From contig NZ_FCNV02000003.1 of the NCBI RefSeq assembly GCF_001544615.1, positions 544,428-608,427 on the forward strand: 64,000 bases of DNA, in the 5' to 3' direction. This DNA is from Caballeronia concitans. Lineage in GTDB: Bacteria > Pseudomonadota > Gammaproteobacteria > Burkholderiales > Burkholderiaceae. Shown piece after piece: positions 2,434-11,899 of the stretch. Positions within the stretch are counted from its first letter, which is position 1; each line of letters opens with the position of its first letter. Below the pieces are notes generated by a model. The model saw only the letters and a program-made list of their open reading frames with translations. It did not search any database and was not told the DNA's origin. Position numbers and translations under genes: made by a program.

Positions 2434-5400
2434 TGCGCACGCGACAACGCATCATCGCGACGATGCTCTGTGCCGCGCCCGCGATCGTTCTCGCGCAGGC
2501 GAGCGCTGATCCGCTCAACGTGCTCATCGACCAGGGCAAGTACTGGCAGGCGCACAAGCGCGGCGACCTCGCGGAGCAGGCGTGGCAGAAAGTGCTGCGC
2601 ATCGACCCGAAGCAGCCCGATGCGCTCTTCGGCATGGGCATGGTGCTCGCGGATCGCAAGGACGGCAGCGGCGCGCAGCAATACCTCGCGCAATTGCGGC
2701 AGGTCGCGCCGAACTATCCGGGCATCGACGAACTCGGGCGGCGGCTCGGCGAAGCGAGTCCGCGCGATCAGACCGTCAACGACGCGCGCCGTCTCGCGCA
2801 AAGCGGACAGAGCGCGTCGGCGGTGCAGGAATACCGGCGCGCGATCGACGGCAAGCCCGCGACACCAGAACTCCAGCTCGAGTATTACCAGGCGCTCGCC
2901 GCGACGCCGCAGGGCTGGGACGAAGCGCGCCGCGGCCCGACCAGCTCGCGCGCCAGAACGCCGACGATCCGCGCTACGCGCTCGCCTACGCGCAGCATTT
3001 AACGTATCGCGATACGACGCGGCGCGACGGCATCACGCGTCTCGCGAAGCTCGCGGGCGACGGCAGCGTCGGCGCGCAGGCGAAGAAAAGCTGGCGGCAG
3101 GCGCTGTTGTGGCTGGGCGCGCGGGCATCGGATGCGCCGCTGTTTCAGGCGTACTTGCAGACCGCGCCCGACGACGCCGCCGTCAAGGCCCGCTTCGACG
3201 CGATGGTCCAGCAGGACAAGACCGCCCGCGAGCGCGCGCAGGCGGACGCAGCCGTCGATGCGCGCGGCCGCGCCGTCGCCGATGGCTTCGCGGCGCTGGA
3301 TCGCGGCGATCTCGTCGCGGCGCAGGCGCGCTTTTCGGCGGTGCTCGCGGCGAATCCGAACGACGCGGACGCGCTCGGCGGCCTGGGCGTCGTCGCGCTG
3401 AAGCAGGAGCGGTTTGCGGAGGCGCGCACGTATCTGGAACGCGCATCGCGTGCGGGCAACGCCGCGCGCTGGAAGGACGCGCTCACGAGCGCAACGTACT
3501 GGACCTATACGAGCGATGCCATCGGCGCGCGCAGCAACGGCGAAATCGCGAAGGCGAAGGCGCTGTTCGAACGCGCGATCGCCGTGAATCCGGCCGATGT
3601 CACCGCGCAGACGCAGCTCGGCGACATGCTGCTCGGCAATGGCGATGCGCGCGGCGCGGAAGCGGCGTTTCGCATGGCGCTGCGCCGTCAGGCCGACAAT
3701 CCCGATGCGATTCGCGGGCTCGTCGGCGCGCTGGCCGCGCAAGGACGCGGCGACGAGGCGCTCGCGTTCGCGAACCGACTGAACGCGGAGCAGCAGGCGA
3801 AAGCGGGCGGCATCGACAAGTTGCGCGGCGAGGCGCAGGCCGCGCAGGCGCGCGCGGCCGAAGCGCGCGGCGATCTCGGCGCGGCGCGCAGTCTTTTCGA
3901 GGACGCGCTGCTCAACATCCCCGACGATCCGTGGCTGCGTCTCGATCTCGCGCGCATCTACGTGCGGCAAGGCGCGGTCGGCAACGCGCGCAGCATGATG
4001 GACGGCCTCGTCGCGACGCATCCCGACATGACCGATGCGCTCTACGCGAGCGCGCTGCTCGCCGCCGAAACGCAGGACTGGTCGGCGGGGCTCGCGCAAC
4101 TGGAACGCGTGGCGGCGGCGCAGCGCACGGCCGCGATGACGGCGTTGCAGCATCGCCTGTGGGTGCAGCAGCAGGCCGAACTCGCGACCCGTGCGGCGAG
4201 CGCGGGCCAGCGCGCGCAAGCAATAGCAATTCTGCAGCGCGCCGAGCCGGTCGCGGCGGGCAACGCGGAACTGATGGGCGCGGTGGCGTCGGCGTATGTG
4301 AAGGCGGGGGATGCGTCGCGCGGACTCGCGCTGGTGCGCGGCGCGATCGCCCGTGCGCCGAACGACACGGGCCTGCTGCTGCAATACGCCGGCATTCTCT
4401 CGTCGACGCAGCAAACCGCCGAACTCGGCGCGGTCATGCGCCGCCTTCAGTCGATGCCGCTCACCACGCAGCAGCGCGCCGACTTCAACGATCTGAACGT
4501 GGGCATCGTGATCGCGCAGGCGGATGCGGTGCGCACGCGCGGCGATCTCGCGGGCGCTTACGACGTGATCGCGCCGTGGCTCGCCGCGATGCCCGACAGC
4601 GCGGACCTTCAAGCGGCGCTGGGGCGCATGTACGCATCGGCGGGCGATGACCGCAACGCGCTCGCGTGCTATCGCGCGGCGCTTGCGCGTCGTCCGGACG
4701 ATGCCGCGTTGCAAAGCGCGGTGATATCGGCGGCGACGGGCGTGCGCGACTTCCGGCTCGCGGAATCGCTCGCGCAGCAGGCGATGGCCGCATCGCCGAA
4801 CGATCCCGGACTGCTCGCCGCAATCGGACGGATGTATCGCGCACAAGGCAAGCTCGATCTCGCCGCGCAGTTCCTTCAGCGGTCGCTCGTCGCGGCGAAT
4901 TCGCCTGTGGTCGCCGGAGCGGGACGCAACGGCAACGTGCCGCGCGACTGGCAGGCCGCGATGAATCGTATCGGCTCGACGCCGCTTCCCGGGACCAATC
5001 CGTTCGAAGGCAAGACGGCGGTCGGGGCGGCGGCGTCGGGGAATTCGCAGGTCAATTTCAATTCGTCTTATTCGACTCCCGTGCCGACTTATCTGCCGCC
5101 TCCACAGCCTGCGCCTTCCGCGCCCTATTCCGCGCCTTATTCCGCGCCTGCCGTTTCGCCTCGTGCTGGCGGCAGTGGAGGGTACGGGCCGGATTCGTAT
5201 GGGTCCGCGCAATCGGGCGGGCCGCGTGCGGTGGCGATGCGCGGCGGTGCTACTGGACCGGATGCTTATCGCTCCGCGCAATCGGGTGCGATGCCGACAG
5301 CAGCAAGCGGCGGTTATGAATCCGACATCTACGGCTCCGCGCAATCCGGTGCGGCGCTACAGCCGTATCCAGGGCAGGAAGCGGACGCTTATCCGGCAAA

Positions 5401-6961
5401 CGGCAATCAGCCGTATGCGCAGCCGGACCCCTACGCCACTTCGCCCTGGCCGATGTCCCCCGCCGCGCGCGATGCGCAATCGGGAAGCAATGCAACGCCT
5501 TCGACGGGCAAGCGAGCGGCATCGCGCAAGGCGGCAGCAGCGCCGGCATACGGCGGCCAGCAGCCGGCGTATCAACAACCGTATCAGCCCTATCAACCGT
5601 ATCCGCAACAGTACGCCCAGCGACCTTACGCCCAGCAGCCCTACATCCCGCAGCCGCCCGCCGGATACGCGCAGCCGTACTACCCCGCGCAAGCCCAACG
5701 CGCCGCGTCCGCCGCCACGATGACCGCCGGCGGCATGCCCGCGCCCGCCGCGCCCGCCAGCGGCATCGCGAACTCGCAGACTGCGGGCGTCGCCGAAGAA
5801 CTCGCGGCGATCAACCGCGAGCAGGCCAGCACGATCTCGGGCGGCGTCACGTTCCGCAGTCGCGATGGCGAAGACGGCCTGTCGAACCTGACCGATATCG
5901 AAGCGCCCATCGAAGGCCGCATCAAGGCGGGCAACGGACACGTGATCGTGCGCGCGACGCCCGTCACGCTCGACGCCGGCACCGCGAGCAGCACGCCGCA
6001 AACTTTGTTGCGCTTCGGATCGGGCAACGGCGCGCTCTCGACGCCGCCCGTCAACAATTACGGGTCGCAGACCGCGACGGGCGTCGGTCTCTCGGTCGGC
6101 TATGAGAATCGCCACTTCAAGGGCGATATCGGCACGACGCCGCTCGGCTTTCGCGAGACGAACGTCGTCGGCGGCGTGCAATATCAGAACGCGATCAGCG
6201 ACAAGGTGTCGTATTCGATCGCCGTCGCGCGCCGCGCCGTCACCGACAGCCTGCTCTCCTACGCCGGCGCACGCGATGCCGGCGCGGGCCTCGAATGGGG
6301 CGGCGTGACATCGAGCGGCGGCCGCGCGGACCTCGGCTGGGACGACGGCACGAGCGGCGTCTACGTCAACGCGGCGTTCCAGTATCTCGACGGCCGGCAT
6401 GTCGCGTCGAACACCGCCGAGAAAGGCGGCGGCGGCGTCTACACGCGCATCCTCAAGGACGCGGACCAGACGCTGACGGTCGGCGCGAACACGACGCTCA
6501 TGCACTACAGCAAGAACCTGTCGTACTTCACGTACGGGCAAGGCGGCTACTTCAGCCCGCAGCAGTACGTGATCCTCAATTTCCCGGTCGAATACATGGG
6601 ACGCGCCGGGCTTTTCACCTACGATGTAAAGGGATCGGTGGGCGTGCAGCATTATCGCGAGGACGCGTCGGCGATGTTCCCGGCCGGCGTGCCCGACTCC
6701 GTCGCCGTGCCGGACGCGAGCGCGCTGGCTTATCCGGGCCAGAGCAAGACCGGCGTGTCGTATTCGCTCAGCGCGACCGGCGAATATCAGCTCGCGCCGC
6801 AGTTGACGTTCGGCGCGACGGCGTCGTTCGGAAACGCGTATCAGTATCGCGATTGGCTGGCGGCGGTGTACGTGCGATACAGCTTCAACCGGCAGGGCAA
6901 CGTGCAGCCGCTGTTCCCGCCGCAAGCGTTCAGCTCGCCGTATCTTTCGTTGTCGAATTAA
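2427..6961 (+). pseudogene. bcsC: Cellulose export porin BcsC, interrupted by a one-base deletion
   Basis: BcsC is the TPR scaffold plus outer-membrane beta-barrel that exports cellulose. The start is ATG 2427, with GGAG six bases upstream. The N-terminal frame gives a signal peptide and TPR repeats up to YYQALAATPQGWDEARRG, then runs out of frame and stops at 3002. The BcsC sequence resumes in the next frame at DQLARQNADDPRYALAYAQH. Two bases lie between the GGC (Gly) and GAC (Asp) codons near 2934-2939 where three are needed. Start to stop is 4535 bases, and adding one gives exactly 1512 codons, a normal BcsC size. After the frameshift come further TPRs, a Pro/Tyr/Gln-rich linker (about residues 885-1110) and the C-terminal barrel (about 1125-1511). 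The deletion may be a real mutation, a slippage site or an assembly error. The rest of the frame shows no decay. Confidence 0.85.
5192..5353 (+). repeat. Three imperfect YGSAQSG-type repeats inside the BcsC linker
   Basis: Codons for D-S-Y-G-S-A-Q-S-G-G (from 5192), D-A-Y-R-S-A-Q-S-G-A (from 5261) and D-I-Y-G-S-A-Q-S-G-A (from 5324) recur with 22-23 codon spacing. They lie in a low-complexity Gly/Ser/Pro/Tyr stretch between the TPR region and the outer-membrane barrel of BcsC. This looks like a flexible periplasmic tether that has grown by duplication. Confidence 0.7.
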
Positions 6962-11056: not shown

Positions 11057-11071
11057 GGCTTTCGGAAAGCC

Positions 11072-11098
11072 AAAGGCCTCCGAAAACCGGAGGCCTTT
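11072..11098. terminator. Bidirectional intrinsic terminator
   Basis: A perfect 11-bp stem, AAAGGCCTCCG with its reverse complement, around a 5-base AAAAC loop. The A-rich and T-rich ends let it work on both strands. It ends the lrp-like gene on the plus strand and the small-peptide cluster on the minus strand. Confidence 0.8.
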
Positions 11099-11137
11099 GA
11101 CTGGTCAGTCGCGCTCTCAATTCAGAGAGCGGCGGTC

Positions 11138-11257
11138 TTAACCGCCGGCGGAAATGTTGATTTCCACCGTAGTGTTCGACGAAGACGTACTCGACGCCTT
11201 GGCGGTGCCACCAGCGATGTTTGCCTGCACGAGAGCGGCGCGATCGATCTTTTGCAT
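11138..11257 (-). CDS. Small Ser/Thr-rich peptide A of a three-gene tandem family
   Basis: 39 aa, starting MQKIDRAALVQANIAGG and ending TTVEINISAGG. AGAGG lies seven bases before the ATG. It is the last of three tandem minus-strand paralogues (with 11323-11436 and 11489-11638) and ends 40 bp before the shared terminator. The N-terminal 17 residues are identical to peptide B, then comes a Thr/Ala/Ser linker and a short alternating polar/hydrophobic tail. There is no Cys, no classical signal peptide and no membrane segment. The layout of conserved leader, Gly-Gly and variable Ser/Thr tail resembles ribosomal peptide precursors, but no modification enzyme is adjacent. I do not recognise the family. 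Confidence 0.7.
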   Translation of the reverse strand: MQKIDRAALVQANIAGGTAKASSTSSSNTTVEINISAGG

Positions 11258-11322
11258 TTGAAAACCTCTTGGTTGAAGTAACGAACGGGAATGCGAACGC
11301 TCGAAGCGAGCGTCTGCGTGGC

Positions 11323-11436
11323 TTAAGCCGTGATGGTGACGCTCACGTTGGTGGTCGACGTGGACGTGCTCGACGCCTTGGCGGTGCCACCAGCGATGTT
11401 TGCCTGAACGAGTGCGGCGCGATCGATTTTTTGCAT
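11323..11436 (-). CDS. Small Ser/Thr-rich peptide B of a three-gene tandem family
   Basis: 37 aa. It shares MQKIDRAALVQANIAGG and the following TAKASST with peptide A, and its tail TTNVSVTITA alternates polar and beta-branched hydrophobic residues. GGAGG lies seven bases before the ATG, one of the strongest ribosome sites in the window. Copies A and B share long identical DNA stretches, for example across the AGGTAK codons, so the duplication is recent or the leader is under strong constraint. An upstream in-frame extension exists, but the Shine-Dalgarno position fixes the start at 11436. Confidence 0.72.
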   Translation of the reverse strand: MQKIDRAALVQANIAGGTAKASSTSTSTTNVSVTITA

Positions 11437-11488
11437 TTCAGTGCCTCCAAAGGAAAGGATCAAGAACGATGTACTGCCAGCCCGAATC

Positions 11489-11638
11489 TCAGGACGGGGG
11501 AGGAACGGCACCGCCACCGCCACCACTAGACGTGATCGAGATGCTGACATTCGTGGTCGACGACGAGGAACTCGACGCCTTTGCCGAACCGCCCGCGACG
11601 TTCGAAAGAGCCAGAGCGGCGCGATCGATCTTTTGCAT
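11489..11638 (-). CDS. Small Ser/Thr-rich peptide C of a three-gene tandem family
   Basis: 49 aa, the first gene of the tandem and the most diverged. The leader is MQKIDRAALALSNVAGG, followed by SAKASSSSSSTTNVSISIT and an extra SSGGGGGAVPPPS tail that A and B lack. AGAGG lies six bases before the ATG. About 260 bp of lower-GC DNA without a convincing gene separates it from the divergent gene at 11900 and must hold the promoter for the cluster; I could not fix its -35/-10. Function unknown. Confidence 0.7.
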   Translation of the reverse strand: MQKIDRAALALSNVAGGSAKASSSSSSTTNVSISITSSGGGGGAVPPPS

Positions 11639-11899
11639 GTGAAACCTCTTCATTGAACAAAGTAGCAATGGCGCGAATATGCCATCGACACGTTCAGCCG
11701 ATTCAACGTTACATAGCCATCCTAATCGATGACACTTGGCCGAATGACGGAACGGAAAGAAGTCTATCGAAGGGCAACTGGAAAGCACATGCCGAAAAAT
11801 CTGAACTATTAGTGACGAAACGCAACTATAGGCGGCGCGCTCCAATGTGCGCTTTCAACGCAAAGCCCGGCGCTGCGTCGTCCGCGTTTAGATAGCAAA

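What the first reader, a model, noticed from the sequence alone, without database searches (positions are those of the whole stretch)
11138..11638. Three tandem micro-genes with a shared leader and an alternating beta-strand tail
Seen: three minus-strand genes of 39, 37 and 49 aa, each with a strong ribosome site 6-7 bases before the ATG, all starting MQKIDRAAL and reaching AGG at residue 17. After that comes an Ala/Ser/Thr linker, then a tail in which polar and beta-branched residues alternate (VEINIS, VSVTIT, VSISIT). Copy C has an extra Gly/Pro-rich end. Copies A and B are nearly identical in DNA across the leader, while the tails differ. They end at a shared terminator. Established: ribosomally made peptides often have a conserved leader ending in Gly-Gly and a variable core, and come in tandem copies. 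Inference: they could be precursors processed by distant enzymes, secreted signalling or bacteriocin-like peptides, or self-assembling beta peptides. No modification, protease or export gene adjoins them. I know no described family of this kind.
Basis: partly seen in the sequence, partly recalled or inferred. Interest (0 to 1): 0.78.

Follow-up and report, generated by a model that had tools for sequence, protein, structure and literature searches.

The report
Secreted double-glycine peptides with dedicated acyltransferase
Three tiny tandem genes, probably from a Caballeronia bacterium, belong to a family of micro-peptides that look secreted; the likely export machine sits elsewhere in the genome beside an enzyme that may attach a fatty acid to them.

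Summary
Three minus-strand genes (39, 37, 49 aa) share MQKIDRAAL...AGG; A and B are under purifying selection in relatives (dN/dS 0.13-0.16). The genome holds three more copies. Two of these, about 379 kb away, lie directly before a PatA-fold acyltransferase, HlyD, a C39-peptidase ABC exporter (PCAT) and TolC, so leader-cutting and export machinery is available at a distance.

In 398 genomes of the family, 50 have the peptide, 47 the acyltransferase, 45 both. In class-level samples only the window genome matched. All four machinery genes are recognisable in 17 of 17 operon loci, truncated in one; no immunity gene is shared.

A lysine at position 2 or 3 after Gly-Gly is kept in 92 of 93 peptides found with a leader-only profile, while the rest of the core ranges from Ser/Thr beta tails to Cys/Pro-rich.

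Best explanation: precursors of PCAT-processed, type-1-secreted peptides, probably acylated on that lysine before export. Export is well supported by genomics; acylation, surface role and bioactivity are inference. Eight literature searches listed no paper on the family.

The parts
11138..11257 (-). precursor peptide A, 39 aa: leader 1-17 (MQKIDRAALVQANIAGG), core TAKASSTSSSNTTVEINISAGG
   Evidence: ortholog comparison; synteny
11323..11436 (-). precursor peptide B, 37 aa: same leader, core TAKASSTSTSTTNVSVTITA
11489..11638 (-). precursor peptide C, 49 aa: leader MQKIDRAALALSNVAGG, core SAKASSSSSSTTNVSISITSSGGGGGAVPPPS; only two peptides, not three, were found at this locus in the seven related genomes read
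   Evidence: pattern search, so a degraded third copy could be missed
11760..11809 (-). conserved upstream element ATAGTT(N2)GA(N)TTTTC(N)GC...TAGACTT, possibly the cluster's promoter or operator, about 120 nt before gene C
   Evidence: alignment of 7 genomes; pattern made from these 7 then found exactly once in each of them and not in G037 (7 of 8), reversed-pattern control 0; window hit without mismatch
11068..11102 (.). 15-bp-stem hairpin between the convergent Lrp gene and the cluster; possible transcription end
   Evidence: not flagged by the terminator scan
11204..11209 (-). codons of Gly17 and Thr18 of peptide A; the cut is predicted between them
   Evidence: codons checked; C39 exporter of the same genome

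Best explanation
The three genes are precursors of small secreted peptides. A 17-residue leader ending in Ala-Gly-Gly directs each one to a dedicated C39-peptidase ABC exporter (PCAT), which works with HlyD and TolC encoded about 375-380 kb away. The exporter cuts after Gly-Gly and pushes the 20-32 residue core across both membranes (well supported by genomics, not shown biochemically; about 0.85). Before the cut, a PatA-fold acyltransferase encoded in the same operon probably attaches a fatty acyl chain to the near-invariant lysine at core position 2-3, so the product would be a ribosomal lipopeptide with a short Ser/Thr linker and a beta-strand tail (inferred; about 0.45). The orphan cluster in the window supplies extra cargo to that machine, perhaps from its own conserved upstream element. 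The likeliest end use is a surface-attached or released lipopeptide, such as a biofilm, fimbria-associated or signalling peptide, rather than a classical killer peptide (weak inference; about 0.35).
For: Six copies in the genome. Two sit directly upstream of acyltransferase, HlyD, C39-ABC and TolC (Pfam C39 1.6e-24, HlyD_3 4.7e-12, OEP 6.9e-37). Cys12, His85, Asp101 (the C39 catalytic residues, by position, recalled) and the Walker A lysine are invariant in the 16 of 17 transporters aligned (the 17th, L149, was left out and lacks the C39 domain). Nearest solved relatives are PCAT1 and ComA. In 398 family genomes: peptide 50, acyltransferase 47, both 45, Fisher p about 4e-51 (relatedness not corrected for). 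13 of 13 named operon loci have peptide-acyl-HlyD-C39-TolC in order; three loci in other genera have the order peptide-HlyD-C39-TolC-acyl. Lys at +2/+3: 91 of 91 (search biased to it) and 92 of 93 with a leader-only profile. Acyltransferase model pLDDT 78.6, pTM 0.80; the 12 Foldseek PDB hits with E<=0.001 are all PatA, best 9.4e-7; 12 of 13 members hit the PIM-acyltransferase model weakly, best 7.4e-7. His133 and Asp210 invariant in 13 of 13, fitting the His plus block-3 acid of PatA/HtrB/MsbB (PMC4792965, passages). Purifying selection.
Against: No cleavage, export or acylation was observed. The leader has hydrophobic residues at -4, -9 and -14, not at the -4/-7/-12 that LahT recognises (PMC10885120, passages). 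The HX4D aspartate is Tyr in this acyltransferase family, and enzymes of this fold usually acylate lipids. Five of 50 peptide genomes lack the acyltransferase and the orthologous exporter (G002, G026, G044, G045, G056; G056 has another, 35% identical C39 ABC), though the peptides read from them still carry the lysine, so lysine and enzyme are not strictly coupled there. The operon is damaged in several genomes: split inside HlyD in G016, degraded in G014 and G018, acyltransferase in two pieces in G270, and in G342 most of HlyD and the C39 domain are missing.
Confidence: 0.5

Rival explanations
1. Unmodified class II microcin/bacteriocin-type peptides exported by a PCAT; the acyltransferase remodels the producer's own envelope lipid (lipid A or similar) as self-protection.
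For: Double-Gly leader plus C39-ABC, HlyD and TolC is the class II microcin export layout (layout recalled); tandem variable cargo; PatA and its relatives acylate lipids (PMC4792965, passages; fold).
Against: Does not explain the near-invariant lysine in otherwise unrelated cores. No conserved ORF besides the peptides and their antisense shadow frames in the gaps of 7 close genomes, none shared by 17 loci. Purifying selection on A and B. Up to seven peptide copies per genome, some at loci without immunity partner.
Confidence: 0.2
2. Secreted self-assembling beta peptides (biofilm or fimbria-associated matrix), with or without acylation, made together with the chaperone-usher fimbriae encoded next to the export operon.
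For: Alternation far above shuffles; a fimbrial usher lies upstream in 7 of 13 named operon loci and in the window genome; about 125 nt separate the last fimbrial gene from the first peptide in the window genome; one extra peptide copy lies near an usher (L144).
Against: 24 of 91 cores start Cys-Cys-Lys and mostly lack a beta tail, yet share leader, lysine and operon; 6 of 13 named operon loci show no usher in the stretch held.
Confidence: 0.2
3. The conserved lysine is only a recognition residue for the exporter's peptidase or channel, and the acyltransferase serves another substrate; the peptides are plain secreted signals.
For: Peptides from genomes without the acyltransferase keep the lysine (G002, G026, G044, G056); signalling peptides are a known use of PCATs (ComA is a near solved relative).
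Against: The acyltransferase tracks the peptides closely and stays with the operon through a gene-order change.
Confidence: 0.2
4. The orphan window cluster is a relic, no longer used.
For: It lies far from the exporter; five related genomes have peptides but no orthologous exporter.
Against: dN/dS 0.13-0.16 over 7 genomes, ribosome sites, locus and upstream element conserved; a third copy is present only here among those read.
Confidence: 0.05

Closest known systems
Double-glycine peptides of peptidase-containing ABC transporters (PCAT/AMS)
   Same: Short leader ending in Gly-Gly, several variable cores per machine, C39 peptidase fused to ABC exporter; LahT likewise serves up to nine precursors (PMC10885120, passages)
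   Different: Leader hydrophobics at -4/-9/-14 with Arg at -12 and a polar -7; a near-invariant lysine after the cut; a linked acyltransferase
Class II microcins of Gram-negatives (colicin V type; features recalled)
   Same: Double-Gly leader and C39-ABC/HlyD/TolC export; small peptides
   Different: No immunity gene found, copies also outside the export operon, cores only 18-57 aa, purifying selection; activity unknown
Selidamides and nostolysamides (lipidated RiPPs)
   Same: Fatty acylation of a Lys/Orn side chain near the start of a ribosomal core (nostolysamide precursor: Lys1; PMC13060382, passages), here only proposed
   Different: Those use GNAT enzymes and NHLP or Nif11 leaders, often with a lanthipeptide synthetase; here a PatA-fold enzyme, a 17-aa leader and no other modifying enzyme seen
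PatA / HtrB / MsbB acyltransferases
   Same: PatA fold and probably the catalytic His plus block-3 acid
   Different: HX4D Asp replaced by Tyr, no Pfam match above cutoff, gene tied to peptides
RTX toxins with HlyC acyltransferase (recalled, not searched)
   Same: Lysine acylation of a cargo in the cytosol, then type 1 secretion
   Different: Cargo is a giant protein with C-terminal signal; HlyC has a different fold (recalled)

Membership tests
PCAT (double-glycine) exported peptides | N-terminal leader ending GG/GA/GS | tested here: met
   GG in 91 of 91 peptides (part of the set came from a pattern that demands GG)
PCAT (double-glycine) exported peptides | Cognate C39-peptidase ABC transporter in the genome | tested here: met
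   Own genome; catalytic Cys/His/Asp invariant in 16 of 17 transporters, the 17th (L149) left out of the alignment and lacking the C39 domain; 5 of 50 peptide genomes lack the acyltransferase operon
PCAT (double-glycine) exported peptides | Hydrophobic residues at -4, -7 and -12 (LahT type recognition) | tested here: not met
   -4 V/I/L/M in 90 of 91, but -7 mostly Gln/Lys and -12 Arg in 90 of 91; Leu at -9 in 91 of 91, Ile at -14 in 87. This defines the LahT subtype, not all PCAT substrates
PCAT (double-glycine) exported peptides | Cleavage after GG and export | not testable with these tools
   needs biochemistry
Class II microcins | Linked immunity gene | tested here: not met
   None in the peptide-to-acyltransferase gaps of 7 close genomes (ORFs of 30 aa or more) and none shared by 17 operon loci (ORFs of 90 aa or more); a very small or unlinked immunity gene is not excluded
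Class II microcins | Antibacterial activity | not testable with these tools
   -
Lipidated RiPPs (selidamides, lipolanthines) | GNAT-family acyltransferase | tested here: not met
   Acyltransferase has PatA fold, no GNAT match
Lipidated RiPPs (selidamides, lipolanthines) | Acyl group on peptide | not testable with these tools
   conserved Lys is circumstantial
PatA/LpxL-type acyltransferases | Fold | tested here: met
   12 of 12 PDB hits with E<=0.001 are PatA, best 9.4e-7, TM 0.50-0.53 by query and 0.58-0.64 by target length
PatA/LpxL-type acyltransferases | Catalytic His and block-3 acid | tested here: inconclusive
   His133 and Asp210 invariant in 13 of 13, but equivalence to PatA His126/Glu200 was not superposed residue by residue
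Known Pfam/NCBIfam peptide families | Match above curated cutoff | tested here: not met
   Six own-genome peptides: no match except DUF4762 at E 0.089, below cutoff, for one

The most novel reading that the evidence does not exclude
A new class of ribosomal lipopeptide. Short double-glycine precursors with a new leader register (-4/-9/-14) are N-epsilon acylated on a near-invariant lysine by a PatA/LpxL-type lipid acyltransferase repurposed for peptides, then cut and secreted by a shared PCAT/TolC machine that also takes cargo from orphan clusters scattered over the genome, and the tails assemble as beta structures on or around the cell.
Probability: 0.35. Interest if true: 0.82.

Novelty: new variant of a known kind. 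Interest (0 to 1): 0.62.

Why it matters
The family occurs in about one in eight genomes sampled from the window's family (50 of 398), nearly all in two genera that by the named loci are Caballeronia and probably Paraburkholderia. Neither the six peptides nor the acyltransferases scanned match a Pfam or NCBIfam model above cutoff. If the acyltransferase modifies the lysine, it would be a fatty-acylation route for ribosomal peptides independent of GNAT enzymes, in a compact cassette (one peptide plus four genes) easy to test in E. coli. Orphan clusters that feed one exporter would also show that judging a micro-gene by its neighbours alone can miss its machinery.

Tried and rejected
Peptide family models: no hits. 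A chance ORF or relic: rejected by copies, synteny and dN/dS. Immunity gene: none found. My early note that in G016 the acyltransferase stays with the peptides while the transporter is far was withdrawn: the break lies inside HlyD and beside a truncated usher, so it is a rearrangement or assembly join. On re-checking, L149 (G342), one of the three loci with changed gene order, turned out to lack HlyD residues 117-409 and transporter residues 1-164; '17 of 17' therefore means recognisable, not intact. G018's weak peptide match (E 0.003) lies in a 472-codon open frame, also seen in G024, and is probably chance; it is not counted in the family table. The first lysine count came from a profile that included the lysine column plus eight peptides from a pattern that demanded it; I repeated it with a leader-only profile (its candidates still come from loci brought in mostly by whole-peptide profiles). 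From the list, three rows (two truncated copies and one start variant) were dropped before the count of 91. The genus-level Fisher test treated G018 as having a peptide and is not used. Searches scored only part of the first-look candidates per genome, so their counts may be low. A sequence profile of the acyltransferase against PDB sequences gave no useful hit. The plasmid collection's record of Caballeronia sp. M1242 carries no annotation here, so public names of these genes could not be read. A sigma-70 consensus scan found no promoter. Azoarcus BH72 paper: passages only, an unrelated protein with a C39 motif. Haft 2010 NHLP-Burk family (passages) is a different Burkholderia precursor near TOMM enzymes. 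Dirix 2004 was seen only in reference lists and not read; it could mention a relative. The literature searches were judged from listings of the best 2-20 papers each.

Full report
What is there. The three genes are as described: A 11138-11257, B 11323-11436, C 11489-11638, all on the minus strand, one repeat family, each with a ribosome site. A and B differ at 3 of the first 51 nt. The tails alternate polar and hydrophobic residues far more than shuffles do.

Not alone. A search of the window's own genome (6.17 Mb, 47 contigs) with copy B gave six matches: the three window genes, two on the same contig about 379 kb away (46 and 38 aa) and one on another contig (63 aa). The 46-aa and 38-aa genes sit after a chaperone-usher fimbrial operon and before four genes: a protein without Pfam match, HlyD, a C39-peptidase ABC transporter and a TolC-type channel. 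That is the machinery for cutting and exporting double-glycine peptides. The 63-aa gene lies between an Lrp/AsnC regulator and a fatty-acid hydroxylase distantly like OlsE.

How widespread. In 58 genomes of the genus, 21 had a match at E<=0.01, one of them (G018) probably chance; 20 of the genus matched at E<=1e-3. In 398 family genomes 50 hold the peptide and 47 the acyltransferase; 45 hold both, 5 only the peptide (G002, G026, G044, G045, G056), 2 only the acyltransferase (G018, degraded; G362, a distant match of E 4e-11) (Fisher p about 4e-51, without correction for relatedness). Matches fall in 4 of 25 genera. In class-level samples only the window genome matched (acyltransferase 1 of 369; peptide 1 of 274). 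Named loci are Caballeronia, Burkholderia sp. 8Y and Paraburkholderia species, including P. xenovorans LB400; matching contig lengths and positions show that G040, G048 and G049 are Caballeronia sp. GAFFF1, Burkholderia sp. 8Y and Caballeronia sp. M1242. Of these 15 loci 13 have the order peptide(s)-acyltransferase-HlyD-C39 ABC-TolC; the other two are orthologs of the window cluster. Over 81 fetched loci with the acyltransferase (several per genome) the nearest upstream peptide ends 72-310 nt before it in 77, 3.5-4.8 kb in 3, none in 1. The three distant ones, from two other genera, have the order peptide-HlyD-C39-TolC-acyltransferase (L149-L151); in L149 most of HlyD and the C39 domain are missing. 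Clustering ORFs of 90 aa or more in 17 operon loci leaves HlyD, C39-ABC, TolC and the acyltransferase as the shared genes (the other clusters shared by 16-17 loci are overlapping shadow frames); the usher is in 8 and a TetR-like regulator (name recalled) in 7.

The window cluster is a conserved orphan. In seven related genomes two peptides lie between the same Lrp gene and the same Ap4A-phosphorylase-like gene (in G037 about 2.5 kb further from Lrp); the window genome has a third. Over the window genome and six of these, dN/dS is 0.16 for B and 0.13 for A (Nei-Gojobori, pooled pairs, related sequences). Upstream, a 50-base element (window 11760-11809, minus) is conserved and the pattern made from it occurs once per genome, only here, in those 7 of 8 genomes searched; the eighth, G037, has none.

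Leader and lysine. In 91 distinct peptides the leader is M-Q-K-I-[DE]-R-x-x-L-x4-[VIL]-[AS]-G-G, 17 residues in 90. Hydrophobic positions are -4, -9 and -14; -7 is mostly polar and -12 is Arg. LahT recognises -4/-7/-12 (PMC10885120, passages), so this is a different register. After the cut, Lys is at +3 in 87 and +2 in 4. Because that search favoured lysine, I repeated it with the leader alone: 92 of 93, the exception being a frame with AGR in place of AGG in the degraded G014 locus. The rest of the core is free to change: 65 cores with fewer than two Cys, rich in Ser, Thr, Ala, Val and Ile, and 26 with two or more Cys, of which 24 start CCK and at least one still has a Val-rich tail.

The acyltransferase. 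No Pfam match above cutoff (Lip_A_acyltrans at 0.12 for one member); 12 of 13 relatives hit the NCBIfam phosphatidylinositol mannoside acyltransferase model weakly (best 7.4e-7; for the first member 18.5 bits against a cutoff of 209). A model from 13 sequences (pLDDT 78.6, pTM 0.80) matches PatA of Mycobacterium smegmatis in all 12 PDB hits with E<=0.001. His133 is invariant; the HX4D aspartate is Tyr. [quoted passage not shown] the match was not superposed.

Mechanism proposed. Shown: gene family, conserved operon, C39 catalytic residues in the 16 of 17 transporters aligned, likeness to PCAT1 and ComA, selection. Inferred: the leader is bound and cut by this C39 domain and the core leaves through HlyD/TolC; the orphan cluster uses the same machine in trans; the enzyme acylates the lysine while the precursor is still in the cytosol, when the core N-terminus is not free and the lysine side chain is the obvious nucleophile. 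Precedent for acyl-lysine in ribosomal peptides exists with GNAT enzymes (nostolysamides, selidamides; PMC13060382, passages), not with this fold as far as I found. Against it: peptides from genomes without the enzyme keep the lysine, and enzymes of this fold usually acylate lipids.

Function. No immunity gene found and purifying selection speak against an arms-race bacteriocin but do not exclude it. The beta tails and the neighbouring fimbriae suggest a surface role for the Ser/Thr class; the Cys class shows that the system is not tied to one fold.

Literature. Eight full-text searches in an open-licence library listed no paper on this family among the rows shown; subscription papers are not covered, and Dirix 2004 was not read.

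Noticed in passing
L006 / G000:C16:121154-121345: A longer subtype (57-63 aa) with another conserved C-terminus (...ASSxIxxNGxxVxxQxVTF); in the window genome it lies between an Lrp/AsnC gene and a fatty-acid hydroxylase, and G002 has one near a related AsnC gene; it is also seen in G002 and G026, which lack the acyltransferase.
   Followed up: partly
L077, L079, L081, L100-L110, L124-L130: Cys-Cys-Lys core class, often Pro-rich, mainly in the second genus, with the same leader, lysine and operon; possibly metal-binding or disulfide peptides.
   Followed up: partly
L142 and L143 (G016): HlyD and the fimbrial usher are split between two places about 710 kb apart, so the export operon is broken or misassembled there.
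   Followed up: partly
L149 (G342): HlyD residues 117-409 and exporter residues 1-164, including the C39 domain, are missing between two adjoining pieces: a deletion or an assembly fault.
   Followed up: partly
L146 (G044), L025 (G045): Small genomes (3.8-3.9 Mb, hundreds of contigs) with peptides but no acyltransferase or orthologous exporter; G045's tail looks frameshifted, as in decay.
   Followed up: no
L007:2130-8029: A chaperone-usher fimbrial operon ends about 125 nt before the first operon-linked peptide; the two may be co-transcribed.
   Followed up: no
window 2582-6961: Large TPR-like protein with a porin-like C-terminus that resembles cellulose synthase subunit BcsC (recalled from the sequence, not searched).
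   Followed up: no
window 11760-11809 (minus): The conserved upstream element holds two ATAG/TAGA-type blocks some 30-40 nt apart; regulator unknown.
   Followed up: no
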